30,107 nt of DNA, taken from IMG/VR virus record IMGVR_UViG_3300005265_000022, positions 1 to 30,107 of that record, one strand, 5' to 3'. Numbering within the stretch: the stretch's first letter is position 1; each line of letters opens with the position of its first letter. The notes under the pieces are model-generated. The model was not told where the DNA came from, ran no database searches, and was given only the letters and a program-made list of their open reading frames with translations. Shown here piece by piece: positions 1,453-26,357 of this stretch. Made by a program: the position numbers and the translations under genes. Origin of the DNA: a virus.

Positions 1453-2157
1453 TTAATCAACTGGTTTATTATATAAACTTGTATATGATTCAAACATATC
1501 TTTTATTGCCCAATAATTCCTATTCGGAAATAAATCATAGAAAATATGTTCATCATCAAAATAAAATGTTCCATTTTTATATTTTGGTGGAACATCGGTT
1601 GCCCAATTTTTACCAATTTTATGTAACATATCGTGCATATCATTCTGATTTTTATTCATTAATTCTCTATGAGAAAAAAACATTCTGGAAAATGACTGAA
1701 TAGAATTTCTTTTGCAATCTTGAACACGCCATAAAAAATAATTGGGAACATCATCAATTGGAATATTAAATGCCCGCCCATCAAAAATGCCATTATGTCC
1801 AAAATAATTTGAAAATCCCAAAGACATTGCACTTGCCGCAATAGAAACCATTTTTTGAATATTATAATCAAACCATCCCTGTGTTTCATGTTTATTCAAA
1901 TCACTTAACAAAATAGACACTTCATCCGATTGAAAATAGGCCACTTGAAACCCCTGTGAAATAGTGTTTTTGACCATCATAACTCCATTCAACATAGAAT
2001 TATAAAATACTTCATCAAAAACACTTTTACAATATTTGCGTGTTAAAGTGTGAAATGCCTTTCCATCAAGTCTAATAATTACTGGAATTTTGGGAATGAG
2101 ATAATTTCGATAAATATTCTCATATTTTTTCATTCTATCACCCAAAGAATCATTCAT
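1453..2157 (-). CDS. thg1: tRNA-His guanylyltransferase-like 3'-5' polymerase (Thg1/TLP family)
   Basis: The 234-residue protein matches the Thg1 fold. RLDGKAFHTLT (29-39) carries the first metal-binding Asp (D31), FQSDEVSILLSD (75-86) the second pair (D78, E79), and DGRAFNIP follows later; human Thg1 uses D29, D76 and E77 in the same contexts. The family adds nucleotides in the 3'-5' direction: eukaryotic Thg1 adds G-1 to tRNA-His, while bacterial and archaeal Thg1-like proteins mainly rebuild damaged 5' ends of tRNAs. The length fits the bacterial-type catalytic core. The start has AGGTGA four bases upstream. With the polynucleotide kinase, RNA ligase and two phage tRNAs, tRNA repair is the likely job (inferred). 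Confidence 0.9.
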   Translation of the reverse strand: MNDSLGDRMKKYENIYRNYLIPKIPVIIRLDGKAFHTLTRKYCKSVFDEVFYNSMLNGVMMVKNTISQGFQVAYFQSDEVSILLSDLNKHETQGWFDYNIQKMVSIAASAMSLGFSNYFGHNGIFDGRAFNIPIDDVPNYFLWRVQDCKRNSIQSFSRMFFSHRELMNKNQNDMHDMLHKIGKNWATDVPPKYKNGTFYFDDEHIFYDLFPNRNYWAIKDMFESYTSLYNKPVD

Positions 2158-2165
2158 TTTGTCAC

Positions 2166-2432
2166 CTATATAATTATTTTAAAATCCAAATCACAAACCA
2201 TTTTATTTCCTAAATACAACTCTTTGCCGAAAATTTCCATAAATTCCCAGACCCTAAATTTCGTTTTCCCATATACTGATCTATACCGTGCTTTTATTTC
2301 ATCAACTGTAACTTTTTTAAAAACAGTTGGATTTATTTTGTGAAATGAATTATAATAATCAGTTAAAACTTCAAACCCATATTCAGTCAATTCAACCTCA
2401 ATAATATCATTAAAATTGGCCTTAAATTCCAT
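2166..2432 (-). CDS. Hypothetical protein, 88 aa, paralogue of the gene at 2695-2961
   Basis: Unknown protein that is clearly a paralogue of the gene at 2695-2961. Both share NFNDIIEVELTE near the N-terminus, then GF-VL-DYYN, P-VF-K-T, YR---GK-KF-VW-FM--FG and a C-terminal VC---FKII. The pattern suggests a small alpha/beta domain with conserved aromatics. GGGGG lies seven bases before the ATG. It follows a 56-codon gene by 11 bases and precedes the Thg1-like gene by 8. The duplication is seen directly; function is unknown. Confidence 0.82.
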   Translation of the reverse strand: MEFKANFNDIIEVELTEYGFEVLTDYYNSFHKINPTVFKKVTVDEIKARYRSVYGKTKFRVWEFMEIFGKELYLGNKMVCDLDFKIII

Positions 2433-2628: not shown

Positions 2629-2704
2629 TGGCTCCGCTGGCAGGGCTCGAACCTACAACCTGGTGATTAACAGTCACCCATTCTACCAATTGAATTACAG
2701 CGGA
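2629..2704 (-). tRNA. tRNA-Asn(GTT)
   Basis: A 76-base cloverleaf. The acceptor stem TCCGCTG/CAGCGGA pairs fully, the discriminator is G and CCA is encoded. The anticodon stem is GGTGA/TCACC with loop CTGTTAA (anticodon GTT). The T arm is GTAGG-TTCGAGC-CCTGC. It reads AAC and AAT codons, which are heavily used in this AT-rich genome. Its first ten bases overlap the 3' end of the gene at 2695-2961, including that gene's TAA stop. Confidence 0.96.
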
Positions 2705-2961
2705 ATAATTTTAAAATTCATTTTGCAAACCTGTTCCATTCCCGCCCCAAAATAATTTCCAAACACTTTCATAAACCACCACACAAAAAATTTTGATTTT
2801 CCATCTTCATTCCTATACCATTTTTTAGCTTTTTCTATTGTCATTTTTTCAAAAACTTCGGGTGAATAATGATATAATTTATTATAATAATCTGCCAATA
2901 CTTTAAACCCATGTTCCGTCAATTCAACCTCGATAATATCATTAAAATTATATTCAATCAA
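2695..2961 (-). CDS. Hypothetical protein, 88 aa, paralogue of the gene at 2166-2432; ends inside tRNA-Asn
   Basis: Paralogue of the gene at 2166-2432, sharing NFNDIIEVELTE, DYYN, VF-KMT and a C-terminal FKII. The start appears to be TTG (2961): GAGGA lies seven bases upstream and no in-frame ATG occurs before conserved residues. Its last codons, CCG-CTG-TAA, form part of the tRNA-Asn acceptor stem, so coding and tRNA sequence share ten bases. The gene sits three bases after the stop of the previous gene. No functional domain is recognised. Confidence 0.8.
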   Translation of the reverse strand: MIEYNFNDIIEVELTEHGFKVLADYYNKLYHYSPEVFEKMTIEKAKKWYRNEDGKSKFFVWWFMKVFGNYFGAGMEQVCKMNFKIIPL

Positions 2962-4168: not shown

Positions 4169-5557
4169 TTATTTTATATTGACAATTTTTGCCCATTTCT
4201 TTGGTGCATACAAGAACAGTGCCCCGTAAAGTAAAATCATCCAACGATAGGCAGGTGCAATTGTAGCCAAATCCATCTTTAACAACGGTGCGAATTGTTT
4301 GAAAGAAATAACCTGTGGTGTCATTTCCCCAATATACACTGTTGAACTATTGGCAACGATATCACCAATTTCGTTGTATGTTGTGGTAGCACTTGCGGCG
4401 TCATTTGCGGCGGCCACTTTCTTCACAAAATACATTGTTGATCCACCCTTTTCAGATAGATAAATTTTGTAATAAGAAGGTTTTTCACCGTTTGGATAAG
4501 AAGCCGCATTTGTAATTGTAATTGGATAGTGATCTGTTGCCGAAGATACCGTAATTGTAGCAGAAGCGCATGGTGTTGATTCACCATATTGGTTACACGC
4601 TGTTGCTGTAATTTCGTAACTTCCTGTTCCCTCTACCCATTTTCCATCTGTTCCGGCCCCGGTTCCAACTGCAATAGAAGCAGGTGCGGCGGGTGCCTTT
4701 GTAGAAGTTGCGCTTGTTGGTGGTGTTTCCCCAGGACGTAAAAACACGTCTGTGTTAATATTAACCCGTCCACCAATTGTGTTAATAACGTTCAGATTAA
4801 CACCGGCGGCCATTCCTTCTTGACCTGGCAAAACTACACGTTGACGTGGGAAATATAAATCAACGATTTCTTTATATGGTTTGAATCCCATAAAAATATC
4901 TGTTGGAACTCCATAGTTTTGAAGAACCAATTCAGACGCTTCATTAATCATTTCTTCTGTTAAAGCGGCTCCTCCAGCATCTACGATATTTGAACTATCA
5001 ATTTGATTATCAATTCCATCAAATTCGACGTATTCTGATCCGCCCACTCCAAGTTTTGAATTTCCGTGAAAAAGTGCCCTTTCCAAGGCTCTCATGATCC
5101 ACAAAATCCCGTTTCTGTTTTCAAGGGCAATAACATCGCCATGTGCCACCCGTGCTAAACTCATAGGATGAGTAACTTGACGTGTTGTTCCCAAGAATTT
5201 AATGAAACCTGCCATACGTTTATAACTTGAATCCTCTGTCTCTGGCAGTTGACCTTCTGTTGTAAACGCTCCGGCTTCACTACCGTATTCTGTCAAAATA
5301 TTGTATTCTTCGACTGTTGAATAGGCAGGTGTTTTTGGAACTTTTTTCCAAAAAGTAAAATGTTTTTCTTGAAAGGTTAAAACCTTTAATGACGTTTCAA
5401 GTGATTCAACTCTAAGTGCTGAACCTCCCGTCATACCAATTTGTTTGTCATAACCAGCGTTCAACGCTTTGGTTAATTCGCCAACTTCGTCTTGTGAAGA
5501 AATTCCAAATCCCCCAAGAACCTGCGGCATATTAGCATAATCAGCAATACCAACCAT
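4169..5557 (-). CDS. Major capsid protein (HK97 fold) with an Ig/FN3-like insertion
   Basis: The 462-residue protein has the plan of HK97-fold capsid proteins of large myo- or sipho-type phages: an N-terminal region with AGYDKQIGMTGGSALRVESL (34-53), an E-loop-like stretch (81-135), LERALFHGNSKLG (158-170), a substrate-type FDGIDNQI loop (179-186), and helices and strands of the P and A domains. Residues about 277-410 look like an inserted Ig or fibronectin-type beta sandwich (YEITATACNQYGESTPCASA, YYKIYLSEKGGS), richer in Ala, Thr and Gly and in GC than the rest. AAGGAG precedes the ATG by ten bases. The N-terminal motif recurs in the prohead protease. Position after protease and scaffold genes supports the call. 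Confidence 0.88.
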   Translation of the reverse strand: MVGIADYANMPQVLGGFGISSQDEVGELTKALNAGYDKQIGMTGGSALRVESLETSLKVLTFQEKHFTFWKKVPKTPAYSTVEEYNILTEYGSEAGAFTTEGQLPETEDSSYKRMAGFIKFLGTTRQVTHPMSLARVAHGDVIALENRNGILWIMRALERALFHGNSKLGVGGSEYVEFDGIDNQIDSSNIVDAGGAALTEEMINEASELVLQNYGVPTDIFMGFKPYKEIVDLYFPRQRVVLPGQEGMAAGVNLNVINTIGGRVNINTDVFLRPGETPPTSATSTKAPAAPASIAVGTGAGTDGKWVEGTGSYEITATACNQYGESTPCASATITVSSATDHYPITITNAASYPNGEKPSYYKIYLSEKGGSTMYFVKKVAAANDAASATTTYNEIGDIVANSSTVYIGEMTPQVISFKQFAPLLKMDLATIAPAYRWMILLYGALFLYAPKKWAKIVNIK

Positions 5558-5583: not shown

Positions 5584-6432
5584 TTATCGACTTCGCTCGA
5601 TAATGGCTTTTATTTTCGGTGTAATAACACCATTTGATTCAAACAATAAAATATCATTTGAATCTATTGTCCCTTCCGCTTTAAAAAATTCTTGCTCTAA
5701 AATTTGCAAAATCTGTGATTTATTCATCACCTTTTCGGTTTCAGATTTGCCTAATGGACTTTCAACATAAGTTACGGGAGCATTTTTATTCACGGGTTGG
5801 GACTCTAACTCTTTAATTGACTTTTTAATTTCGTCAATTTCCTCTGAAACTTTTTCCTCAAATTCATTCAAAGTTTCATTCAATTTTTCGCCAATTTTTT
5901 CGGATTTTTCCATTTCGCTTGTTAAGGCAATTGTATCCTCAATTGACTTTTTCAATTCTTTGGCAGTAATAACAAGTGATTTTTCAATCTTTTCTTCTGT
6001 TTCCGCCAATGATTTTTCAAATTTATCAATACGATCATTAATTTTATCAAGTCTTTCTGAGACTTTTTCAACTAATGATTTTAGAAAATCCGAAACTTCA
6101 TAAACAACTTCAAGTTCTTCGTCTTCTACCAACGATTTCTTTGCTTTTTCCTCTTCCTCATCTTCATCCTCATCTTTTTCCTCTTCCTCATCTTCTTCGT
6201 CCTCATCTTCCTCACCTTCTTCGGCCTTTTCCTCTTCTTCATCCTCATCTTTTTTGGCCTTTTTAGCCTTTTCGATTTCATCCTCTAATGATTTAATAAA
6301 ATCGACATCTTCATCATAAACAAATTCATCAAGTTCAGATTTGCTCAATGTAACCTTGACTTTATCAAGTTCTTTTTCGTCAATTTCATCAATATAATCA
6401 TCAATTTCTGACTTATTCAAAATTACTTTCAT
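5584..6432 (-). CDS. Probable capsid scaffold protein, 282 aa
   Basis: A highly charged, mostly helical protein between MuF and capsid genes, where scaffolds usually lie. The N-terminus has two similar units (KVILNKSEIDDYIDE and KVTLSKSELDEFVYDE), then a long Glu/Asp/Lys tract (52-98), then coiled-coil heptads (about 115-210), a Pro/Asn linker, and a helical C-terminal segment (MNKSQILQILEQEFFKAEG) that may bind capsid protein. Many K-S-L/I triplets recur along it. AAGGAG lies nine bases before the ATG, and two TTTATATTATT-like motifs lie just upstream. Scaffold function is inferred from position and composition; no sequence family is claimed. Confidence 0.72.
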   Translation of the reverse strand: MKVILNKSEIDDYIDEIDEKELDKVKVTLSKSELDEFVYDEDVDFIKSLEDEIEKAKKAKKDEDEEEEKAEEGEEDEDEEDEEEEKDEDEDEEEEKAKKSLVEDEELEVVYEVSDFLKSLVEKVSERLDKINDRIDKFEKSLAETEEKIEKSLVITAKELKKSIEDTIALTSEMEKSEKIGEKLNETLNEFEEKVSEEIDEIKKSIKELESQPVNKNAPVTYVESPLGKSETEKVMNKSQILQILEQEFFKAEGTIDSNDILLFESNGVITPKIKAIIERSR

Positions 6433-7293: not shown

Positions 7294-8220
7294 TTAAAAC
7301 CCGGCAATAAGCGCATTTTTTAACATATCACGTATTTCATCATCTGAAAAACCACGTGCTTTTAAAATATCATACCCTCGTTTATAGTTTTTTCTCACAT
7401 AAGTTAAAATTTTTTCATCTTTGTCTAATGACTCTTCCCTAATTGCGCTTCCCCCCGTCATTCCTATTTCTTTGGCATAACCCGCACTTAATGACTTGGA
7501 ACATTTTACGTTATTTTTGAAATTTGTATAAGTTTCACTATTCAATAAATTAATACTTTCAAAAACTGATAAAACAGCATCATAATCCTCTGAATCTAAA
7601 ACAACCGATTCATTTTCTGGAAGTGATTTACCCATAATTGCTTCTAATGATTTTTCAAAGGCACTAAAAGTCTTAAAAGTTTCTTGTAAAACTGGTTTGT
7701 GAGTAATTGCTACATTTCTAACTATGGCAGATTCAACTATATTACTGTTGGAAGGATTTCTGGACACATACTTTCCCTCTACCGACATTCCTAAATTTCT
7801 TACGTGTTCTTTTGTTAAATCGGCTTTTTTTAAGAATTGTAAAAAATCCCAAACCCATTCGGCCCGTTTAAAATTAGGACCTTTAAATAGGTTTCCAACT
7901 AAATAAAATCCTTTTCTATCTATTTTTGTTCCTTCGGAAGGAAGACCAATAATGTCATCAGGCTCTTTTTTATGATCCCAATTTAAAACCCCAAATTTTA
8001 ACAAATATGAAATATCAAGACCTTTTGTTAAAATGGTTTCCCCATCCAAATCTTTTTTCTGGACAGACGCATATCCCGAAATAAATCTTTGGGTATCATT
8101 ATTTATGGATTTTTCAAGTGTATCAATCTCATTTGTGACTGGAACGATAAAATCAATTTCCTTATCTGTGCAAAATCTATAACCTTTTGAATCAACATAA
8201 CAATAAAAATTATCCGCCAA
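7294..8220 (-). CDS. Prohead maturation protease (HK97/U35-S78 type) with C-terminal extension
   Basis: Residues about 44-175 match the prohead protease fold: FISGYASVQKKDLDGETIL, VLNWDHKKEPDDIIG with the likely catalytic His (H83), and LGMSVEGKYV with the likely Ser (S146). A linker of about 60 residues follows. Then comes SAGYAKEIGMTGGSAI (245-260), almost the same as the capsid N-terminal motif, and a helical tail (FSDDEIRDMLKNALIAG). The start is TTG with GAGGTG nine bases upstream and four bases after the previous stop; no ATG fits. It cleaves capsid and scaffold propeptides during head maturation. The shared motif may be its processing or docking site (inferred). Confidence 0.9.
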   Translation of the reverse strand: MADNFYCYVDSKGYRFCTDKEIDFIVPVTNEIDTLEKSINNDTQRFISGYASVQKKDLDGETILTKGLDISYLLKFGVLNWDHKKEPDDIIGLPSEGTKIDRKGFYLVGNLFKGPNFKRAEWVWDFLQFLKKADLTKEHVRNLGMSVEGKYVSRNPSNSNIVESAIVRNVAITHKPVLQETFKTFSAFEKSLEAIMGKSLPENESVVLDSEDYDAVLSVFESINLLNSETYTNFKNNVKCSKSLSAGYAKEIGMTGGSAIREESLDKDEKILTYVRKNYKRGYDILKARGFSDDEIRDMLKNALIAGF

Positions 8221-9605: not shown

Positions 9606-9679
9606 TGGCTGAGGGGGGAGGGATCGAACCTCCATGACAAGATTCAAAGTCTTGTAGCCTACCATTAGCTGACCCCTCA
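9606..9679 (-). tRNA. tRNA-Gln(TTG)
   Basis: A 74-base cloverleaf with acceptor TGAGGGG/CCCCTCA, discriminator G and encoded CCA. The anticodon stem is CAAGA/TCTTG with loop CTTTGAA (anticodon TTG), and the T arm is GGAGG-TTCGATC-CCTCC. It reads CAA. Its first three bases, TGA, are also the stop codon of the dUTPase gene upstream. Confidence 0.96.
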
Positions 9680-11472: not shown

Positions 11473-11501
11473 ATTATATCATAAAAAATTGAAAAAATAA
11501 A
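11473..11501 (-). promoter_or_regulatory. Promoter for the thyX-dut operon
   Basis: Minus strand: extended -10 TGA TATAAT (TATAAT at 11473-11478) with a weak -35 TTTATT (11496-11501) at 17 bases. The -35 lies in the T-run of the preceding terminator. Predicted start near 11466, leader about 20 bases. Confidence 0.65.
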
Positions 11502-11526
11502 CGCACCAACATTATAATTGGTGCGC
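11491..11526 (-). terminator. Rho-independent terminator after the ssb operon
   Basis: Minus strand: stem CGCACCAA/TTGGTGCG (11502-11509 with 11518-11525), 8-base loop, followed by TTTATTTTTTC. It ends the ssb two-gene unit and merges with the next promoter, so the T-run serves both. Confidence 0.85.
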
Positions 11527-11548
11527 TATTTGGTTTTGATCGAAAACA

Positions 11549-12116: not shown

Positions 12117-12145
12117 ATTATAACACACTTTTTACCAAAATTAAA
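12117..12145 (-). promoter_or_regulatory. Promoter for the ssb unit
   Basis: Minus strand: extended -10 TGT TATAAT (TATAAT at 12117-12122), 17-base spacer, -35 TTTAAT (12140-12145). The -35 overlaps the stop codon of the 1670-residue gene. The motif GGGTTTAATTTTG around the -35 recurs at 25552-25579. Confidence 0.75.
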
Positions 12146-15100
12146 CCCACACTATTTTATACAATTTACCCAATGATTTTTTAATTTCACCGGATGTTCC
12201 CAAAATATCTGTTAATTCATGTTTTGGAATTGGTGTTGTTTTTCCAATATCTATATAATCTCTTAAATGTTGAAACGCCAAAAATGCCTTTTCTATACCA
12301 CGTTGTTTAGATTGTGCCGCCCCTAAAATAGACGCTTCTCCAATATTTATTTCACCTAAATATCTTGAAAAAATTTCTTCTTTAATTGGATTAGCATACA
12401 ATATACGTTCAACATTTTTAAACATTCCCATTTCTTCAAGTAATTTAACATCTTCACTTGGCATTGACGCAAGAATTTTATTAATAATATCAAAGGAAGT
12501 TTCAGAACTAACCTCTTTTTGTGCTAAATCTTCCCCTTCAATTCCATACAAGGCTTTAACTTCATTTTCATATCTTGTCTTAAACTTATCCCAAAGTTCT
12601 TTAATTTTTGGATCATTTGTTTCATTCAACATTCTTGTAATTCTTGCTATTCTTTGTTTTGACATAGTTGGAGAGAAAATCTGATCGTATTCATACAATT
12701 TAGCCGCATTTCCAAAATTCAATCCAACATTAGCCGCATCTGAGGCAACCATAACTTTGACATTTTTCAAAATTTTAATTTGTCTATCTGTCAATCCTTT
12801 TTTCACATCAATACCATAATCTTTTTTCAACATTTCTTTTTCATCATCTTTTAACTTATTTTCCTCAATCAATTTCAAAATCAAAGGATTTCCATTTTTA
12901 TCTTTTCTAAACAATTTCTCATTTATATCTCGGCCTTGTTCATGCCCAATATAAGTTGTATAATATTTTCCAACAGGAGAAGTTGCTTCACCATTTAAGG
13001 CATCTTTAACATTTCTCAACCCCGCCGTTTCACATGCGGCCACACAACTTTGGGTTGAAGGAACAATTCTATTTCCAAAAATCACCATTTCTTCGTCATA
13101 GGTTTCTGGATTATTTAATGACCGGATAATTTCGTCTCTTAGATATTGTGCCTTTGAATTGGCATACATAACTGACTGATAAATTTGATTTAATTCTTTT
13201 CTATCAGTAACTTTACGTTTTGTAATCTTTGATAAATCGGGTTTTCCTTTAGAATCCACTCCAATTTTACGTTCAAACCATTCACCCGATGAGGTATCAT
13301 ATTTCCACATAAATGGTCCGCCCTGATCCCGTCTATAAACATTCCTAATTCCTTCTTGATTATAAAAGGGATTAGGAATTTTATTTCCAATTAAGTGATC
13401 TGGCAATCTTTTACCTTTAATTTCAGGGGGCATTTTATGTTTTGTTCTACCATATTCCCTAAATTTTTCAATTTCTTCATTTGAATATCCCATTGCTGGA
13501 AGTAAATAATCAATCATTAAATGCCACATTTTAATATCTTCCGGCGAATCAGAACCAGGCCATTCGTCTGGCAATTTCTCTGGATATCTAACAGGAATTG
13601 ATTTTTGCCCCTTCGGATTTCCTTTTCTGTCAATTATATCAACTTTTTCTATTAAGAATTTATCTCCCTCATTTTTAATAAAATTAGGACAATTTGCAAC
13701 ATTTCGTAAATTTTGAATTTTACGTTTCAAATTAGCATCAATTTCTTCCTCTGGAATTTTACCTTCGGCAATTTGCTTTAATTTTTCAAGTTCTTCGGGT
13801 GTTAATTTTTTAGCCAATTTTTTATATAATAAATCTTGATATGCGGCCTGTTCACCATTTATACATTCAACCAATGCTTTTTTAACATTAGCAAAAGGCA
13901 TAATTTTTCCCTTAACATCGGCGGATGTTACAATATGAGCATATTTACCAACAATAGCCGCCAATTTTTCAAGATTCTTCGGTTGTGTCATTTTACCTGT
14001 AATTGGGTCACGTGCAACATAAGTTTTTACAAACTCTTCCTTTGTTCCCAAATCCACAACCCCATTTGAAATTAATCTCAAATATTCTGGCAAATCTTTT
14101 AAGGTATCAGTAATGAAAGTCCCTGACATCATTACTAAATTATCTACAACTTCACTTGCTTCCCTTAAAGATTGATTTAATTTTGACCGTTTTGCTGGAT
14201 CAAGATTCCCTTGTTTAAATCTATGTGCTTCATCAACTATGACAGTTTGGAATCTATTTTTTCTCAAAATTTTATCTCTATGTCTTGCAAAATATTCATG
14301 TCCCACAATTACACATTCACTCGTTTTGCTCCAATCTACATTATTAATGTTTCTGCCATCTCTATATTTTTTATATTGCCCTGCAATAATAGTTGGAGTA
14401 ATTTCTGTGAAATTTTCAAATTCAGCTTCCCAATTGGAAAGTGTATTCGCCGGGACTACAAATAATGTTTTCTTTCCAAGACCTTCCCGTTTTAGAGTTA
14501 AGTGAGTAACAATTCCTTCAAGTGTCTTTCCTGTTCCCATTTCATGAGAATACATTGCCCGACCATTGTTTTCAATACAGAATTTCACGGCATCTTTTTG
14601 GTGTTCACCCAATTTAATAGGCATACCCTCTAACTTTGTAGTTAATCGCATACCAGGTAATTTAGCAGGTGTAATTGTTTCTTTATCAATTTTTCCCACT
14701 TTAGCCGTTTTTTCTTTTTTGGATGTTGTTAGTGCTTCTTCCATTGTTTGTAAATCTTTCATTACATCATCCGTGCAAACATAACCACCCAAAACCTTGT
14801 TTAAATTCAAGACCCCATCCATTGTAATAATCATATCTTGATTTTCATCTGTTCCTAACGGCTTTGAAATTCCAATTAAGGATTGTTGTAAACCCGCTTC
14901 TGTAAGTTGTGTCATTTCAGTATCTTTTGGCATTTTAATTCGTAAAGAACCTGACCGATTATCTTTATAGATCAAAATGTCAAAAGGAAATTGGTCATAG
15001 ATTTTTTCTGTCGCCTTTGCAACTATATCAACATCTTTAACTTCTTTGGAAGTGAATCTTTCTAATTTTGGGGAATCCCCCTCTGGACGAATTGTATATG

Positions 15101-17153
15101 TATAAACATCCCTACCTTCTGTAAAACTGTAAGTTTTTTTCACATCTACAATATGTGCGGGATGCAATTTACCATCCGTTTCAGACCGATAATAACAAGG
15201 ATTTCCAACTTCTAATTTATAATAGGAAATTGGCTTTGTTTCTACTGTTGGTGGAATTTTATCTTCTCTACTTAGTATTTTTCTTAAAATATCACTATCA
15301 ATTTTATCATCCAAACTTTTTGTTATTCCAAGTGCATACGCCAATCTATTATAATAGTCACCACCAATTTCAAATTTTTCCCCACCATTAAATTTAAAAC
15401 TTATAACTCTATGAAATGTTTCAACTTTATTTCCATTATCATCAAGATAATCACCTGAAACAGTATCGGCATATAGTGTTTTTCCTTTATTTTCAGCAAG
15501 TTTCAAAATAAGTGATTTGACATCTGTAACTCTAAATCCTTCTCCAAACATTTTTTGAAATAATAAAGGATAAACAATTTTTCCATCTGGACTAACTTTA
15601 ATTATCATTTCCCCATTTGGATTGTTCAAATCACCAATAGTTTTTCGTTTGAAAATTCTATTTCCATTTTCATCCACACCATCTTCTTCAAAATTATCCC
15701 AATTAAAACATCCTGACTTAGCATAAAATTCAGATTGTGTTACTTCTTTTGTCTTTTTAAGTGCTTGTGCCGATCCAAAACCAAAATATTTTCGTGGGGT
15801 ATAACCCAACATTAAGGCCACATCTTTCATTGAAATGGGTCTTCCATATTTATCATAAATATCTTTTATGCCTATTTTGTTACGTTTATTTGTGTATTTT
15901 TCATTTGTTCTAAAATAAACATAAAACCCATTTTTTCCTTCCAATCTGTAATACTTATCACCCGCTTCGTGCATAATACCATGTTCTAAATATGGTTCTG
16001 GAACTATGGCATCCCTCAAAGCATCCATTGGGTCCAATGAAACATTCCACCATTGTTTTTCTTTAACTCTACCGGAAGTATAATCGTTTGGGTCCTTTGG
16101 AAGTTTTGGAAAAAATGCTCTTTGAAGTAATCTATATCTATTTGGACAAATTTCGGCCATTTGTGCTGGATGAGAAACCATAGCCGCAAAACTTTCCGCA
16201 AAATCTTCTTCGTGCATTGTGGAAGCATAAGGTGAAATATATCTACCACCATCTTTTACAGCGGCCTTTTTAAATTCATTGTCAAATTGCTCAAACGTGT
16301 TTATACCTTTAAATAAACCACGTTCTTTCATTTTTCTAAAAAACGACTCTTCCTGTTTTGATTTAAAATAAACCACATGCGCCATTTCATGCCATATAAC
16401 TTCAAGAGAAAACGTTTTACGGGACCTGAATTTATTGGGATCAGTTCCGATTCCAATTTCCTTCATTGATCCCTCTGGAATATGAACATCATAATTTACA
16501 CGTGTCATATAACCGGCAACATTAGGCTTTTCCCGTGCATAAAAAGCCTCATTTGTTTCAAATTGTATGTATCCACGATCTTTAAACAATTCCTTCAAAA
16601 AATCCTTACCAAAAAGGTCTTCATATTGTTTAAAGGCAATTTCCAAGTATCTTCGGGGATGATTTAAATATCGACTTTCTTCCGGTTTAAACTGTTTTTT
16701 GTCGGATGAAAGTTCTCCGTGTAATTTCGGAAAAAATTTAAGTTTATCGGGTGGAACTGGTTGAACTTCTTCACCTTTTGGATTAAATTGGCCCGCAAAA
16801 ATATCTCTGATTCTTTTTTCATTTAAAGAAACAAGAGGTTCATAAACAAAGACATTTTCTAACATTTTTTCAATGCGTTCTTGTCTCTCTCTTCGTTTCC
16901 TTTTGGCGGTTCTTTTATCCACTTTCTTTTTACGTTTTTTTGAATTAGGCCCAAATCCTTTTTTATATTTATATTGCCAATTCCCACTTTTATCTTTCCA
17001 TCTCCAAAGATACGAAACTGGTTTACCGCCACGCATTTTACCCCCGCCATATTCGGCATTTGGAGGAACATCACTTGGCCTTTTTGGAATTTTTTCCTCG
17101 GCTTTATTCAAATCAATAACAAATCCCACAGGTCTCATTAAATTTTCATTCAT
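12141..17153 (-). CDS. Giant zinc metalloprotease-SNF2 helicase fusion, 1670 aa, probable injected virion protein
   Basis: N-terminal module (20-65: IPKRPSDVPPNAEYGGGKM, then YLWRWKDKSGNWQYKY) shared with the 585-residue protein; a basic linker (71-92). A zincin-type protease region follows with HEMAH (255-259) and a possible third ligand in EDFAESFAAM (E320). Residues about 370-840 have no known domain. An SNF2/superfamily 2 helicase follows: HEMGTGKT (870-877), VDEAH (973-977), MSGTF (1009-1013), VASDAANVGLNFG, and arginine-finger motif QRIARITR (1500-1507). It lies in a virion block after the portal. Such multi-domain fusions resemble polyvalent proteins and P1 DarB, delivered with DNA to protect it. 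That role is inferred. The ATG has a modest AAGAG or GGGG site. Confidence 0.88.
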   Translation of the reverse strand: MNENLMRPVGFVIDLNKAEEKIPKRPSDVPPNAEYGGGKMRGGKPVSYLWRWKDKSGNWQYKYKKGFGPNSKKRKKKVDKRTAKRKRRERQERIEKMLENVFVYEPLVSLNEKRIRDIFAGQFNPKGEEVQPVPPDKLKFFPKLHGELSSDKKQFKPEESRYLNHPRRYLEIAFKQYEDLFGKDFLKELFKDRGYIQFETNEAFYAREKPNVAGYMTRVNYDVHIPEGSMKEIGIGTDPNKFRSRKTFSLEVIWHEMAHVVYFKSKQEESFFRKMKERGLFKGINTFEQFDNEFKKAAVKDGGRYISPYASTMHEEDFAESFAAMVSHPAQMAEICPNRYRLLQRAFFPKLPKDPNDYTSGRVKEKQWWNVSLDPMDALRDAIVPEPYLEHGIMHEAGDKYYRLEGKNGFYVYFRTNEKYTNKRNKIGIKDIYDKYGRPISMKDVALMLGYTPRKYFGFGSAQALKKTKEVTQSEFYAKSGCFNWDNFEEDGVDENGNRIFKRKTIGDLNNPNGEMIIKVSPDGKIVYPLLFQKMFGEGFRVTDVKSLILKLAENKGKTLYADTVSGDYLDDNGNKVETFHRVISFKFNGGEKFEIGGDYYNRLAYALGITKSLDDKIDSDILRKILSREDKIPPTVETKPISYYKLEVGNPCYYRSETDGKLHPAHIVDVKKTYSFTEGRDVYTYTIRPEGDSPKLERFTSKEVKDVDIVAKATEKIYDQFPFDILIYKDNRSGSLRIKMPKDTEMTQLTEAGLQQSLIGISKPLGTDENQDMIITMDGVLNLNKVLGGYVCTDDVMKDLQTMEEALTTSKKEKTAKVGKIDKETITPAKLPGMRLTTKLEGMPIKLGEHQKDAVKFCIENNGRAMYSHEMGTGKTLEGIVTHLTLKREGLGKKTLFVVPANTLSNWEAEFENFTEITPTIIAGQYKKYRDGRNINNVDWSKTSECVIVGHEYFARHRDKILRKNRFQTVIVDEAHRFKQGNLDPAKRSKLNQSLREASEVVDNLVMMSGTFITDTLKDLPEYLRLISNGVVDLGTKEEFVKTYVARDPITGKMTQPKNLEKLAAIVGKYAHIVTSADVKGKIMPFANVKKALVECINGEQAAYQDLLYKKLAKKLTPEELEKLKQIAEGKIPEEEIDANLKRKIQNLRNVANCPNFIKNEGDKFLIEKVDIIDRKGNPKGQKSIPVRYPEKLPDEWPGSDSPEDIKMWHLMIDYLLPAMGYSNEEIEKFREYGRTKHKMPPEIKGKRLPDHLIGNKIPNPFYNQEGIRNVYRRDQGGPFMWKYDTSSGEWFERKIGVDSKGKPDLSKITKRKVTDRKELNQIYQSVMYANSKAQYLRDEIIRSLNNPETYDEEMVIFGNRIVPSTQSCVAACETAGLRNVKDALNGEATSPVGKYYTTYIGHEQGRDINEKLFRKDKNGNPLILKLIEENKLKDDEKEMLKKDYGIDVKKGLTDRQIKILKNVKVMVASDAANVGLNFGNAAKLYEYDQIFSPTMSKQRIARITRMLNETNDPKIKELWDKFKTRYENEVKALYGIEGEDLAQKEVSSETSFDIINKILASMPSEDVKLLEEMGMFKNVERILYANPIKEEIFSRYLGEINIGEASILGAAQSKQRGIEKAFLAFQHLRDYIDIGKTTPIPKHELTDILGTSGEIKKSLGKLYKIVWV

Positions 17154-17870: not shown

Positions 17871-19628
17871 CTAAATAAAGTTATTTATGGTTTCTCCAAT
17901 TTGAAAAGGTTCATTCTCTATTTTAAATGCTCTATAAGCATATCCTTCTTTTGAATTTGTTTTTTCACCGGAAAAAAATGAAGGTGCAATATCAACTTTC
18001 CAATGTGCCTTTACTTTTTTACCAGTTTTTCTATCTTTTAAAATAACATAAATTTCATTATCACTTTTTTTCTTGTTATTTATTCCAACAAAATCATAAT
18101 CAAAATATCTACTAACAACTTTACCACTTTTTCGACTTGAAGCTACAATTTTAGAAGGCATAATACTACCATCTACCGCCTCAAAAAGATATTTCCCAAT
18201 TTTTTTGTTTGACAACAATTTTTTTAATTCATTCATTACTTCTTTTGATACCATTTTTTCCTTTTCTTTCAATACGTTATAAAAAAACATAGGAACTTTA
18301 CCACCCCGTTTAAAATCTAAAATACTTAATTTTTTTAAACAATCTTTCCCATATTTTCCCTCTTTTCCTTCACAACCCTTTAGTTTTTCAAGTGATTCAG
18401 TTTTTAGCCATGCCGAATCAAATGTGCAATCTTTTTCACTTGCTTTATCAATCAATAATTTATTATTTTTTTCGTATTTACCAGCCTCTTTTCCTTTTAA
18501 ATCTTCAAAAGTTTTAGCCAATTCAGTCAATTTATCAATACTTTCATCAAAATCTCTTTTTTCCTTTTCATCCAATACGCCAATTGATTCCATTTTATTC
18601 CGTGCATTTCCCAAAATATTTTTATACGAAACACTCGAAAATTCAGCATGTTTGTTTTTGAAATTCATCAAAGTGTATTGAAAATGTTCTGGAATTTCAT
18701 CTACTTTTTGACCTTTTATAAATTTAACCCTTTTACAATTGACTACAACATTATTTTTATCATCCGAAAGTGGGTTGCAATTCACCAAAAAAACCCTTTC
18801 TTTTTTGTTATCTGTATCATTATTTTTTAGATTTTCGTTCATCAAATTTATGTCATCCACAATTTTCAAAATGGATTTATTAACAAGATTCGTAATGTGT
18901 TTTACCTCTTTCTCAATTTTATCTTGATCGTAACCTTTTTGCTCCAAAACCATTCTTAAATATTCAATATGACCCCTAAAAATTTTGGCCGGATTCACAA
19001 AAATATTGTCATATCCACCACCATTTTCTAAATATGTTCTACCCAATTTATTTAAAAAAAATGTTGTTCCATATTTTATGATATCCGAATTGAGTTTATT
19101 GTATTTATGGGTATTTTTCTTAAATTCCCCAATATTTCCATATTTTTTCTTAACATCCATAGCAACTATTTTGCTTTCATTGCTCATGGTTGTATTTGAT
19201 ATGGTATTTAAAATATCAGGACCCATTTGCTCTATGGTAGCAGAATTGTATAAACTATCTAATTTTTCTGGATTTTCCACATAAATATTGCTTTTTGATA
19301 AATCATTCAAATAATCTTTTCCACTCAAATATATAACATTACTTGGTTTTTGATATTGTTTTGGTTGTGGTTTTGGTTTTTCTTTAGGAATTGCTCCTCT
19401 TTCCTGTCCTTCTTTATATACATACTCCCAATTCCCACTTTTATTTTTCCATCGCCATAAATAATTAACTGGCTTTCCTTTATAAGTTTTATCCCCCCCA
19501 TATTCAGCATTTGGAGGAACACCTTTGGGTCTTTTTGGAACATTATTTTCCGCTTTTTCCATTTTAACTTCATATAATCCATTCCCCGAAAAAAAATCGT
19601 AAAATTCTGATCCTTTAATTTTATTCAT
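17871..19628 (-). CDS. 585-aa protein sharing its N-terminal module with the giant fusion; possible packaged protein
   Basis: Residues 27-73 repeat the N-terminal module of the giant protein (VPKRPKGVPPNAEYGGDK, then YLWRWKNKSGNWEYVYKEG). A Pro/Lys/Gln linker follows, then a Lys- and Asn-rich helical body with no recognised enzyme motif, a Cys-containing stretch (DCTFDSAWLKTESLEKLKGC) and a strand-rich C-terminus. The start is ATG 19628 (GGGGG six bases upstream), overlapping the portal gene by 8 bases. Its place just after the portal and the shared module suggest a protein targeted into the head or ejected with DNA. Body function is unknown; a large toxin or anti-defence effector is one possibility. 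Confidence 0.82.
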   Translation of the reverse strand: MNKIKGSEFYDFFSGNGLYEVKMEKAENNVPKRPKGVPPNAEYGGDKTYKGKPVNYLWRWKNKSGNWEYVYKEGQERGAIPKEKPKPQPKQYQKPSNVIYLSGKDYLNDLSKSNIYVENPEKLDSLYNSATIEQMGPDILNTISNTTMSNESKIVAMDVKKKYGNIGEFKKNTHKYNKLNSDIIKYGTTFFLNKLGRTYLENGGGYDNIFVNPAKIFRGHIEYLRMVLEQKGYDQDKIEKEVKHITNLVNKSILKIVDDINLMNENLKNNDTDNKKERVFLVNCNPLSDDKNNVVVNCKRVKFIKGQKVDEIPEHFQYTLMNFKNKHAEFSSVSYKNILGNARNKMESIGVLDEKEKRDFDESIDKLTELAKTFEDLKGKEAGKYEKNNKLLIDKASEKDCTFDSAWLKTESLEKLKGCEGKEGKYGKDCLKKLSILDFKRGGKVPMFFYNVLKEKEKMVSKEVMNELKKLLSNKKIGKYLFEAVDGSIMPSKIVASSRKSGKVVSRYFDYDFVGINNKKKSDNEIYVILKDRKTGKKVKAHWKVDIAPSFFSGEKTNSKEGYAYRAFKIENEPFQIGETINNFI

Positions 19629-21210
19629 TTGTTTCCCCCTCTTCCCCTTCTTCATTTGTCCCAACTTCAAGTGTTTTTAAATAATTACTCAATTCATCCT
19701 CATTACCACCTGGCAACTCTTCCTCATTTTCCTCGCCCTCTGGCTCCTCACCTTCCATTTCACCACCCTCTTCCCCTTCTTCTTCGCCGCCCATCATTGC
19801 CTGTTGTGATAAATACTGAGTATAAGTTGGATTCAAGATAATATCACCATTTTCAATATCTTCCATCCCATTTTCCCGTCTTATTTCATTGATTGTCATG
19901 TAAATCTTTGATTTTTTATCATATTTATCAATACGTTTTTCTTCGGCTTCTGTTGTCAAATCTTCAAGAACGAATACAAAATCCTCAGTAATTTCCGCAA
20001 GAATTTCATTCACAATATCAGCAATCAATTCTAATAAGGGAATCAACCCTCTATCCTTTGACATATTAAGTTTGTCTTTATAATCACGTGCTTGAAATAG
20101 TGATTGTTGTTGTTGCGCTCCAAGTCCTGTTCTCATCATTAAATTTATTTCAAGTGGATCAATTTGATAAATAGCGCAAACAATCTTGATTAAATATTCC
20201 AAAAATTGTGCAAATTGTAAATCTGAATTTCTGTCAAGAGAAATAAATTGAATATCCCCACCACCCGCAGTAATTGGTGTTCTCCAAGCATTTGTAATAT
20301 CCGACACCATAGCGTGCCATGACCGTCTAAATGCTTCTAATGATTTTTGAGAAATATTATCACCTTTAAAATGAATAATTCCTTTTGGTGGACTTGCGGG
20401 TGAAAAATATCGTTTATTATACTCTTCTACAAATAAAAATGACGTGATAACATGAATCAAAATTTCTAATTCAGGTGTTCCATATCCATAACTTCTTATG
20501 TAAGTGTCTGGATTTGTTACAATCATTTCAACATCTTTTGCATTGAACATCCCCTTCACTTGCGTATCTATTACTTGAACAAAATCATAACCAGAATCTT
20601 CCGCCGCAAATCTTAAAGTTGCCCCATCAATAGCCTTAAATGAATGGATTCTGTCTTTTCTATCTCTAATTTTATAAATACCAATCTGATCGTATCTAAG
20701 TCTATCTTTTATGATTTTCATTGCAAATTGTTCAAATTTATCCCGACGCCTATCTTCATTAACCCCACAATACCAAACAAAATCTTCTAACATTTGTATT
20801 GCTTTTTTTTCACTTCTTAACAATGGTTTTGTTCTATCTTTCCAATCTCTCGGTTTTATAGAAAAACCCAATCCTGAGACGCTTTTATACTTCGGCCTTG
20901 TGAATTGTCTAACTTGATTCAATCGTGTAATAATAATTGCACTTACAACTGAAACTTTCTGAGAAATTGAATACATTAAATCATAAGATAAACGTGTTGG
21001 CCTACTTTTATATTTCAAATTTTCCATTAATTGATATGCCGGTTCAAACAAAACTTCTGTATCTTTAGTTTTGGCGTTTTCCTCAGCATAATTGAATTTT
21101 TTAATTGATTTATTCATATTATCAGTCATTAAAAATGACTGTTGCCCGTCCATATTCCGGCTCACCTCAATAAAATCAACCAATCTTACAACTTTTCCTT
21201 CATTTTCCAT
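19621..21210 (-). CDS. Portal protein
   Basis: Matches phage portals: an early helical clip/wing region (YDLMYSISQKVSVVSAIIIT), a core with YDQIGIYKIRDRKDRIHSFK and IDGATLRF, the typical YGYGTPELEILIHVI, EEYNKRYFSPASPPKGIIHF, and GLGAQQQQSLFQARDYKDKL before the C-terminal helices (MTINEIRRENGMEDIENGD). The C-terminus (about 50 residues) is an extreme Glu/Gly tract. The dodecameric portal forms the DNA entry channel at one vertex. ATG 21210 is chosen because GGAG is seven bases upstream and the previous gene stops at 21212. Terminase is not adjacent. Confident from overall pattern. Confidence 0.88.
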   Translation of the reverse strand: MENEGKVVRLVDFIEVSRNMDGQQSFLMTDNMNKSIKKFNYAEENAKTKDTEVLFEPAYQLMENLKYKSRPTRLSYDLMYSISQKVSVVSAIIITRLNQVRQFTRPKYKSVSGLGFSIKPRDWKDRTKPLLRSEKKAIQMLEDFVWYCGVNEDRRRDKFEQFAMKIIKDRLRYDQIGIYKIRDRKDRIHSFKAIDGATLRFAAEDSGYDFVQVIDTQVKGMFNAKDVEMIVTNPDTYIRSYGYGTPELEILIHVITSFLFVEEYNKRYFSPASPPKGIIHFKGDNISQKSLEAFRRSWHAMVSDITNAWRTPITAGGGDIQFISLDRNSDLQFAQFLEYLIKIVCAIYQIDPLEINLMMRTGLGAQQQQSLFQARDYKDKLNMSKDRGLIPLLELIADIVNEILAEITEDFVFVLEDLTTEAEEKRIDKYDKKSKIYMTINEIRRENGMEDIENGDIILNPTYTQYLSQQAMMGGEEEGEEGGEMEGEEPEGEENEEELPGGNEDELSNYLKTLEVGTNEEGEEGETNE

Positions 21211-21211
21211 C

Positions 21212-21796
21212 TTATATCTCCACAAAATCAAGTATTAGTTTTAATTTTGATAATCTAAATTTAAAATTCATGTTTCCCCTGTATTTTTCCATCACGTTAA
21301 GTGCGGTTGGCCTAAATAATGGCCTTGGGGGAATTTTGTTTGTGCCAAATTCAAGTATTCGCCACAATTGACCATAAGTAAGTCCAGAATGATGAACTTT
21401 ATTCTCATCTACCCCAATATATAATGTATTTCCATCTCTAAATATCCCAATTGATTTAAGAAATTCACCTTTTTGTATATAAATCCTTGTATCATATCCA
21501 TGTTTTTGTTTCCACTTTAAATAATTTTTACTTAAAGGTGTCCACGCATATTTTTGTTTTAATATAACCTCTCTTAATTCATTGACATAATCTTGATATA
21601 TTTCATTGTGTTTTGATATTCTGTATTTATCATACGTGGCCTTCAAAATACTTTTAAAAATTTGATTAACTTCCAATAAAGGAATCTGTGGAAACTCCAA
21701 TAACAACCTTTCGGTTTGTTGACCAATCAATTGCCACATTAAATGACCAAAAATGTTTTTATTTCCTTCTTTGGTTCCTGTTGTTACAACTCTCAT
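21212..21796 (-). CDS. HK97 gp10-like tail completion/neck protein, 194 aa
   Basis: The C-terminal half has the gp10-type signature ILEFGTNKIPPRPLFRPTAL preceded by GEFLKSIGIF, a short strand pair and HHSGLTYGQLW. Family members join head and tail or plug the tail tube. The N-terminal half is helical. It lies directly upstream of the portal gene, an order unlike HK97, where it follows the connector genes. GGGG lies five bases before the ATG, which overlaps the upstream stop (ATGA). Function is by family, and the exact neck role is inferred. Confidence 0.78.
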   Translation of the reverse strand: MRVVTTGTKEGNKNIFGHLMWQLIGQQTERLLLEFPQIPLLEVNQIFKSILKATYDKYRISKHNEIYQDYVNELREVILKQKYAWTPLSKNYLKWKQKHGYDTRIYIQKGEFLKSIGIFRDGNTLYIGVDENKVHHSGLTYGQLWRILEFGTNKIPPRPLFRPTALNVMEKYRGNMNFKFRLSKLKLILDFVEI

Positions 21797-25616: not shown

Positions 25617-26357
25617 TTATCTAAAATCCTTGACTTTGCACTTTGTTAAAATTCTTTCCCCCTTAACATTATACAAATCGGGATTAAATCGTGCTACAAC
25701 CCCCTCGGCCTCAAAATCACCATAAACCGAACTGAACCCATTTTTACATAAATCAATTACTGTCAACAAGTCCTGACGGGCAATAAAAGGAACCATATCA
25801 ACATTTAATTCATTCGCCAAATTTGAAACATCTTCCCGTTTAGACAAATAAGTGTTCTGAATTTTAACATCAAATAACACAAACTTATTTTTAAACCCCT
25901 CAAAACTATCATTTACATACTTACCACCTTTTTGAATTTTTTCTCCTATCCCCTCTCCATAAAGAGTAATAACATCAACTTCATCTTTTTCAAGAAAAAA
26001 CGGAAAAACCTTAATCACATTTCCAATATCAAATTTATAGTTACAATAATCAAATATTCCATCAGGAATTTCAGCCTTATCCGTCTTACCACTCATAAAT
26101 AAACCAAATTTAATACCATCTTTAATATCATTAATAGAATCTAAACGTAACCATTTTTCTGGAATTTCAGATTCTTCTTTGAATTTTTTCAAAATAATTC
26201 GAGTATTCATTCCATCTAATTTTTCTTCAATATACCATTTTGCATAAAATAAATTTTCAAATTCTGGACGGGAATATTCCCCCACCCTAAATTTTCCTTT
26301 ATTTTCCCCTTTGTCATATCTTTTATAAATCGACTGAATCTTATGATATTTACTCAT
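25617..26357 (-). CDS. ATP-dependent RNA ligase-type nucleotidyltransferase, single-domain
   Basis: Ligase motifs appear in order: I, EEKLDGMNTR with nucleophile K46; III, LYGEGIG (132-138); IIIa, FVLFDVKI (159-166); IV, EAEGVVARF (216-224); V, LTKCKVKDF (237-245). Together these form the adenylation domain of the RNA ligase 2/DRB0094-like group. The protein ends right after motif V, so it lacks the C-terminal domain of T4 Rnl2 (334 residues). GGGGG lies six bases before ATG. With the polynucleotide kinase and Thg1-like gene it likely seals broken tRNA. A DNA substrate cannot be excluded, but the motif spacing favours RNA ligase. Confidence 0.87.
   Translation of the reverse strand: MSKYHKIQSIYKRYDKGENKGKFRVGEYSRPEFENLFYAKWYIEEKLDGMNTRIILKKFKEESEIPEKWLRLDSINDIKDGIKFGLFMSGKTDKAEIPDGIFDYCNYKFDIGNVIKVFPFFLEKDEVDVITLYGEGIGEKIQKGGKYVNDSFEGFKNKFVLFDVKIQNTYLSKREDVSNLANELNVDMVPFIARQDLLTVIDLCKNGFSSVYGDFEAEGVVARFNPDLYNVKGERILTKCKVKDFR

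What the first reader, a model, noticed from the sequence alone, without database searches (positions are those of the whole stretch)
12141..17153. 1670-residue metalloprotease-SNF2 helicase fusion in a virion block
One frame carries a zincin HEMAH with downstream EDFAE, about 470 residues without any recognised domain, and a complete SNF2/SF2 helicase (HEMGTGKT, VDEAH, MSGTF, QRIARITR). It lies in the portal operon, not with the replication genes. Polyvalent proteins of phages and conjugative elements, and P1 DarB, set the precedent for giant injected anti-defence proteins (established). That this one is packaged and protects incoming DNA is inference. The unassigned middle may hold a new domain.
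Basis: partly seen in the sequence, partly recalled or inferred. Interest (0 to 1): 0.75.

Follow-up and report, generated by a model that had tools for sequence, protein, structure and literature searches.

The report
Tagged phage enzyme, probably packaged, injected
A bacterial virus related to SPO1 carries a very large protein that joins a protein-cutting domain to a DNA motor, and the start of this protein looks like the short, protease-trimmed label that phages use to load proteins into their heads for injection; the same kind of label sits on many different proteins of related phages.

Summary
Pfam finds a zincin (247-331), a full SNF2 motor (851-1508) and nothing recognised between about 370 and 840. 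The fusion itself is not new: zincin plus SWI2/SNF2 combinations are described in phage 'polyvalent proteins', and P1 DarB is a packaged precedent. The window is a fragment of an SPO1-like phage (capsid protein 46% identical). What I add concerns packaging. (1) The first 66 residues are shared (64% identity) with an otherwise unrelated protein beside the portal. (2) In SPO1-like relatives, genes just upstream of the portal repeatedly carry an N-terminal module on unrelated bodies (zincin, ADP-ribosyltransferase, zeta-toxin, SNF2 helicase). (3) 42 of 51 module copies follow [LIM]xK|[ASG]. This motif is tenfold over-represented in the scaffolds and sits at the capsid-protein N-terminus, where a deposited mature chain begins right after the lysine. 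The giant has it (DLNK|A, residues 15-18). Best reading: a head-packaged, protease-trimmed, injected polyvalent effector, working like DarB with a T4-type targeting leader. Packaging and processing are inferred. Targets and the middle region remain unknown: structure prediction failed and no relatives were found.

The parts
12141..17153 (-). 1670-aa giant protein: leader, shared module, zincin, unassigned middle, SNF2 motor
17103..17153 (-). putative head-targeting leader, residues 1-17 (MNENLMRPVGFVIDLNK); predicted cut K17|A18
   Evidence: site [LIM]xK[SAG] at residue 15; same VIDLxKA string as the SPO1-like tags, hhalign P 0.005 over 7 columns only
16956..17090 (-). shared basic-aromatic module, residues 22-66 (IPKRPSDVPPNAEYGG...YLWRWKDKSGNWQYKYKKG)
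   Evidence: 58-64% identical to the portal-adjacent protein, E 2e-21 and 5e-21
16161..16415 (-). zincin-type metalloprotease region, residues 247-331 (HEMAH, EEDFAE)
   Evidence: Peptidase_Mx1 E 1.6e-5, just under cut-off; TIGR04549 E 2.2e-6
14634..16046 (-). middle region, residues 370-840, no recognised domain
   Evidence: no family match; structure prediction failed
13698..14603 (-). SNF2 motor, first lobe, residues 851-1152 (motifs I, II, III)
   Evidence: PF00176 E 1.1e-23; phrog_62 E 1.2e-42
12630..12767 (-). SNF2 motor, end of second lobe, residues 1463-1508 (motifs V, VI)
   Evidence: PF00271 E 1.3e-4, just under cut-off
17871..19628 (-). second tagged protein, next to the portal (585 aa from ATG 19628; 599 aa if TTG 19670); body of unknown function
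19407..19574 (-). leader end (EVKMEK|AENN) and shared module of the second tagged protein
19621..21231 (-). portal protein (SPO1-like)
   Evidence: phrog_12 E 5e-47, PF04860; tblastn to herelleviruses
7294..8220 (-). prohead protease; residues 239-265 (nt 7426-7506) copy the capsid-protein N-terminus (KCSK|SLSAGYAKEIGMTGGSAIREESL)
   Evidence: phrog_1028 E 2e-46
5584..6432 (-). scaffold-like acidic protein with 9 [LIM]xK[SAG] sites (0.9 expected)
4169..5557 (-). major capsid protein; predicted cut ELTK|ALNAG (nt 5399-5479)
   Evidence: phrog_752 E 2e-110; 46% identical to Bacillus phage Goe26
11731..12093 (-). SSB, next gene downstream in the same run
   Evidence: PF00436 E 1.3e-27
11500..11527 (-). 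terminator-like stem closing the portal-giant-SSB run

Best explanation
The giant is a polyvalent effector of an SPO1-like phage that is loaded into the prohead, trimmed and injected with the DNA. Inferred steps: (1) it is made late with neck and portal; (2) its N-terminal leader (residues 1-17), perhaps with the adjacent basic-aromatic module (22-66), docks it into the prohead core; (3) the phage's own prohead protease (7294-8220) cuts after Lys17 in DLNK|A, as it is predicted to do in the capsid protein (ELTK|A) and scaffold; (4) the mature protein leaves with the DNA; (5) in the cell the SNF2 motor tracks on incoming DNA and displaces or blocks DNA-bound defence proteins, while the zincin cuts host proteins. 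Shown here: the domains, the shared N-terminus, the motif statistics, and the equivalent tagged effector slot in related phages. Not shown: packaging, cleavage, injection, and the targets.
For: Shared N-terminus on two otherwise different proteins next to the portal. The motif [LIM]xK[SAG] occurs 9 times against 0.9 expected in the window scaffold (p<=0.0005), and 322 times against 33.6 in 37 scaffold-position ORFs of relatives. The capsid protein has invariant K30, A31, A34 and G35. A deposited mature Herelleviridae capsid chain (9row, 439 aa) starts at S25 of the 463-aa precursor, right after EDVVK. N-terminal modules recur on unrelated bodies directly upstream of portals: 51 non-redundant copies, 42 with the site within 25 residues upstream. 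Among 37 such proteins: PARP/ART in 9, zeta toxin in 3, an SNF2-type helicase in 1 (L042:1742-4315), and an HExxH zincin signature in the large class. Precedents: the first 30 residues of DarB target cargo to the P1 capsid (PMC9024508); the SPN3US prohead protease removes N-terminal propeptides of ejected proteins (PMC10052503); MPTase-SWI2/SNF2 polyvalent proteins (PMC5512222).
Against: The module after the site in the window proteins is not demonstrably homologous to the SPO1-like module (hhalign aligns only 7 columns). Across the whole giant the motif is not enriched (5 against 5.3 expected). One ART subgroup of tagged proteins has no upstream site. Other ORFs near the portals also often carry the site in their first 40 residues (215 of 572 against 58 expected), so a single site alone proves little. 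The next gene is an SSB, which also fits intracellular DNA metabolism. The zincin scores just under its Pfam cut-off.
Confidence: 0.62

Rival explanations
1. The giant is an intracellular DNA-metabolism factor (replication, recombination or packaging helper) that is not packaged; the SNF2 motor works with the SSB encoded next to it, and the zincin is regulatory.
For: SSB is the next gene, ThyX and dUTPase follow; free-standing SNF2 helicases occur in phages, e.g. LysYB1 WAB25162.1, which is not next to the portal.
Against: The N-terminus is shared with a second portal-adjacent protein and carries the inferred protease site; tagged zincins and a tagged SNF2 helicase occupy the same slot in relatives.
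Confidence: 0.2
2. The giant is a prohead core or scaffold-like assembly factor: the tag docks it in the prohead, the zincin takes part in maturation, and it is not delivered to the cell.
For: Position between portal and protease; head-protease-like leader.
Against: SPO1 assembles heads without a giant at this place; the same slot in relatives holds ADP-ribosyltransferases, zeta-toxin kinases and helicases that have no obvious assembly role.
Confidence: 0.12
3. The shared N-terminus is a nucleic-acid-binding or other domain duplicated between neighbouring genes, and the match to the protease motif is chance.
For: The module is basic (28 K+R, 10 D+E in residues 18-100); the motif is short.
Against: Motif statistics across scaffolds and tags, and its placement at the N-terminus of both tagged proteins.
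Confidence: 0.06

Closest known systems
Phage P1 DarB (SNF2/methylase antirestriction protein)
   Same: Giant SNF2-type protein encoded beside portal and prohead protease (P1 ORFs 9-12: Ulx, DarB, Prt, Pro), N-terminal signal of at most 30 residues sufficient for head targeting, packaged and believed to enter the cell (PMC9024508)
   Different: DarB carries an adenine methylase, none recognised here; the giant adds a zincin; the phage is SPO1-like; no restriction phenotype known; sequence match only through the motor (phrog_10089 E 3e-8)
Polyvalent proteins of phages and conjugative elements (Iyer et al. 2017)
   Same: Multidomain, unrelated enzymatic domains in one chain; zincin-like MPTase combined with SWI2/SNF2 ATPase explicitly listed (PMC5512222)
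   Different: No ParB, ART or methylase recognised here; unassigned 470-residue middle
phrog_23829-class zincin proteins upstream of the portal (e.g. Exiguobacterium phage vB_EalM-132 AYP68573.1)
   Same: Tagged N-terminus, HExxH motif, upstream of the portal, SPO1-like phage
   Different: Zincin motif is C-terminal, no SNF2 motor, different module after the site
T4 capsid-targeting sequence of internal proteins; SPN3US ejection proteins
   Same: N-terminal leader (T4 IPIII) and N-terminal propeptides removed by the prohead protease (SPN3US) (PMC9024508, PMC10052503)
   Different: Site is hydrophobic-x-K|A/S/G here, AxE| in SPN3US; a further conserved module follows the site

Membership tests
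Polyvalent proteins (Iyer et al. 2017) | two or more unrelated functional domains in one phage or plasmid protein | tested here: met
   zincin plus SNF2
Polyvalent proteins (Iyer et al. 2017) | association with delivery: virion gene context or packaging | tested here: inconclusive
   virion gene context met; packaging itself not testable
SWI2/SNF2 ATPases | ordered SF2 motifs I, II, III, V, VI in two RecA-like lobes | tested here: met
   PF00176, PF00271 and motif positions
Zincin (MPTase) domain | HExxH plus downstream third ligand in a conserved context | tested here: met
   HEMAH 255-259, EEDFAE 315-320; Peptidase_Mx1 E 1.6e-5 just under the cut-off, TIGR04549 E 2.2e-6; fold not verified
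DarB | adenine methylase fused to SNF2 motor | tested here: not met
   no methylase family matched outside the motor region
DarB | N-terminal head-targeting signal | tested here: inconclusive
   candidate leader found by sequence only
DarB | protects DNA from type I restriction in cis | not testable with these tools
   needs experiment
Processed head cargo of SPO1-like phages (defined here) | [LIM]xK|[ASG] site near the N-terminus followed by a module shared with other cargo of the same phage | tested here: met
   DLNK|A and MEK|A; module shared by giant and 585/599-aa protein
Processed head cargo of SPO1-like phages (defined here) | homologous to the VxVxGKxGxxFxRMQWV module of relatives | tested here: not met
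   hhalign aligned only the VIDLNKA columns; module HMM gave no hit to the window
Herelleviridae (SPO1-like phage) | capsid, portal, protease and scaffold related to or arranged as in SPO1 | tested here: met

The most novel reading that the evidence does not exclude
SPO1-like phages use a general, protease-trimmed N-terminal address label (hydrophobic-x-K|A/S/G leader plus a short module) that lets unrelated enzymes be swapped into a cargo slot next to the portal and delivered with the DNA; the window's zincin-SNF2 giant is one such cargo, from a lineage that has replaced the module sequence.
Probability: 0.55. Interest if true: 0.78.

Novelty: new variant of a known kind. Interest (0 to 1): 0.6.

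Why it matters
If right, head cargo of SPO1-like phages could be predicted from sequence alone: look for the hydrophobic-x-K|A/S/G leader and the shared module upstream of the portal. It would extend the T4 and P1 capsid-targeting principle to this family, give a rule for its prohead protease, and turn dozens of unannotated portal-adjacent genes into candidate injected effectors (proteases, ADP-ribosyltransferases, zeta-toxin kinases, helicases).

Tried and rejected
Close relatives of the giant: none in IMG/VR, GTDB genomes or named phages beyond the helicase core. The first three scans need exact short peptides, so distant relatives may be missed. The window tag in IMG/VR and phages: no confirmed relative; weak Mx8 p75 match at E 2 not pursued. 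Structure of residues 1-372 and 360-850 without an alignment: pLDDT about 40 and 37, unusable; no fold search was made on them. 64 IMG/VR loci with the HEMGTGKT motif: none with a zincin motif or a related portal or capsid gene. Homology of the window module with the SPO1-like module: not supported. Chryseobacterium phage 1459-aa protein near the capsid gene: first thought an analogue, but no Pfam hit and only unknown PHROGs; dropped. Literature for an experimentally mapped SPO1-like protease site or for virion proteomes naming the tagged proteins: none found in the open library.

Full report
OBSERVATION. The ORF at 12141-17153 is real, 1670 aa from ATG, on the minus strand. Pfam gives SNF2-rel_dom (851-1152, E 1.1e-23), Helicase_C (1463-1508, E 1.3e-4, just under cut-off) and Peptidase_Mx1 (247-331, E 1.6e-5, just under cut-off). 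PHROGs gives phrog_62 'DNA helicase' (E 1.2e-42) and weaker matches that include a DarB-like family. NCBIfam adds a second HExxH family. No library recognises residues about 370-840.

CONTEXT. The capsid protein is 46% identical over 97% to Bacillus phage Goe26 and close to SPO1. The portal is about 35% identical to Herelleviridae portals. The 30-kb record, 30.6% GC, is therefore most likely a fragment of an SPO1-like phage. The giant lies in a tight run: 131-aa ORF, Neck1, portal, 585/599-aa protein, 112, 119, giant, SSB, with a terminator-like stem at 11527-11500. ThyX and dUTPase follow. Prohead protease, MuF, scaffold and capsid protein come further on. In SPO1 and its relatives portal, protease, scaffold and capsid gene are adjacent, so here about 11 kb of genes lies between portal and protease.

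THE SHARED N-TERMINUS. A search of the window with the giant itself found a second match: residues 12-75 are 58% identical (E 2e-21) to the N-terminus of the portal-adjacent protein; BLAST gives 64% over 56 residues. The two bodies show no other similarity.

THE SAME ARRANGEMENT IN RELATIVES. A portal profile brought in 80 IMG/VR loci. In Exiguobacterium phage vB_EalM-132 two ORFs upstream of the portal share an N-terminal module (VRRPVQVRGKNGKVFTRMQWVDP) and one has HEFAH. The equivalent Lysinibacillus protein has a similar N-terminus and a PARP-like end. A profile of the module finds it in up to several ORFs per phage, nearly all just upstream of the portal, and in SPO1 gp5.3. Among 37 such proteins, nine match PARP, three zeta toxin and one an SNF2/Strawberry-notch helicase; the large class has a conserved HExxH. 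So the slot beside the portal holds interchangeable enzymes behind a common N-terminus.

A PROTEASE SITE. Nearly all tags begin L-Y-I-D-L-x-K-[A/G/S]. The same pattern, [LIM]xK[SAG], occurs 9 times in the window scaffold against 0.90 expected by shuffling, and 6 times in the protease against 1.03. In 37 scaffold-position ORFs of relatives there are 322 occurrences against 33.6 expected. It sits at the N-terminus of the capsid protein (invariant K30, A31, A34, G35). In PDB 9row/9rox/9roz the capsid chain has 439 residues and begins SFQTGYG, which is residue 25 of the 463-residue precursor in 5lii, right after EDVVK. This fits cleavage after lysine in hydrophobic-x-K|S. It rests on the deposited chain sequence, not on a paper that I could read. 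With a profile of the module alone, so that the site is not part of the query, 42 of 51 non-redundant copies have the site within 25 residues upstream, against 239 of 713 other ORFs in their first 40 residues (Fisher 6e-12; the sequences are related, so the p-value is optimistic). Other ORFs near the portal are themselves enriched (215 of 572 against 58 expected), as expected if many head proteins are trimmed, but this also means that one site alone is weak evidence. The giant has FVIDLNK|AEEK at residues 11-21 and its partner EVKMEK|AENN.

LIMITS. Profile-profile comparison of the window tag with the SPO1-like tag aligns only VIDLNKA (P 0.005). The rest of the module is either too diverged or unrelated. 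The giant as a whole is not enriched for the motif. An ART subgroup has the module but no upstream site. AlphaFold2 on single sequences failed, so neither the zincin fold nor the middle region was verified. No relatives of the giant were found.

MECHANISM. The most likely account is head cargo: synthesis with the portal, docking by the leader, trimming by the prohead protease after K17, ejection with DNA. Then the SNF2 motor would act on incoming DNA or on proteins bound to it, and the zincin on host proteins. The packaging part is supported by sequence evidence; the part after injection is inference from DarB and from polyvalent proteins.

COMPARISON. Iyer et al. (PMC5512222) list MPTase-SWI2/SNF2 combinations and describe DarB as a virion head component. 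The P1 study (PMC9024508) shows that the first 30 DarB residues suffice for head targeting and lists DarB next to portal and protease. The SPN3US studies (PMC10052503, PMC5694885) show N-terminal propeptides of ejected proteins removed by the prohead protease. The giant works like DarB in this reading, but is not filed as DarB because no methylase was recognised. I found no open paper that describes the common label of SPO1-like portal-adjacent proteins, but most subscription papers were not searchable.

VERDICT. The fusion is a new member of a known kind. The address-label system is a new variant of a known kind (T4 and P1 capsid targeting) and is the more interesting part.

Noticed in passing
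window 7426-7506 (-) and 5399-5479 (-): The prohead protease carries near its C-terminus a copy of the capsid-protein N-terminus (KSLSAGYAKEIGMTGGSAIREESL versus KALNAGYDKQIGMTGGSALRVESL). Many relatives' proteases show the same; tblastn with a capsid N-terminus gives 1044 places in 585 phage records, which fits a second copy. It may be a substrate mimic or autocleavage site.
   Followed up: partly
window 1453-2157 (-), 25617-26357 (-), tRNA-Asn 2629-2704, tRNA-Gln 9606-9679: A Thg1-like 3'-5' nucleotidyltransferase (PF04446 E 5e-20), an RNA ligase (PF09414 E 2e-12) and two tRNA genes in one phage fragment: a possible tRNA repair set.
   Followed up: no
window 2166-2432 (-) and 2695-2961 (-): Two neighbouring, visibly similar 88-aa ORFs (perhaps a tandem duplication) around a tRNA-Asn gene.
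   Followed up: no
L037:8852-9463, L045:12731-13357, L041:6035-6721: In another SPO1-like sub-lineage several portal-adjacent ORFs begin with a DD[IV][FY]KG-like string, again hydrophobic/x-K|G, followed by a different glycine-rich stretch: perhaps yet another version of the label.
   Followed up: partly
L089:27850-30945: In Exiguobacterium phage vB_EalM-132 a ParB-like nuclease protein holds the tag module internally (residues 308-348) rather than at its N-terminus.
   Followed up: no
L095:9058-10836, L103:1668-3557 and others: Virus contigs encode free-standing SNF2 proteins beginning MSLGDYLTKSAEE (YLTK|S), a possible further leader.
   Followed up: no
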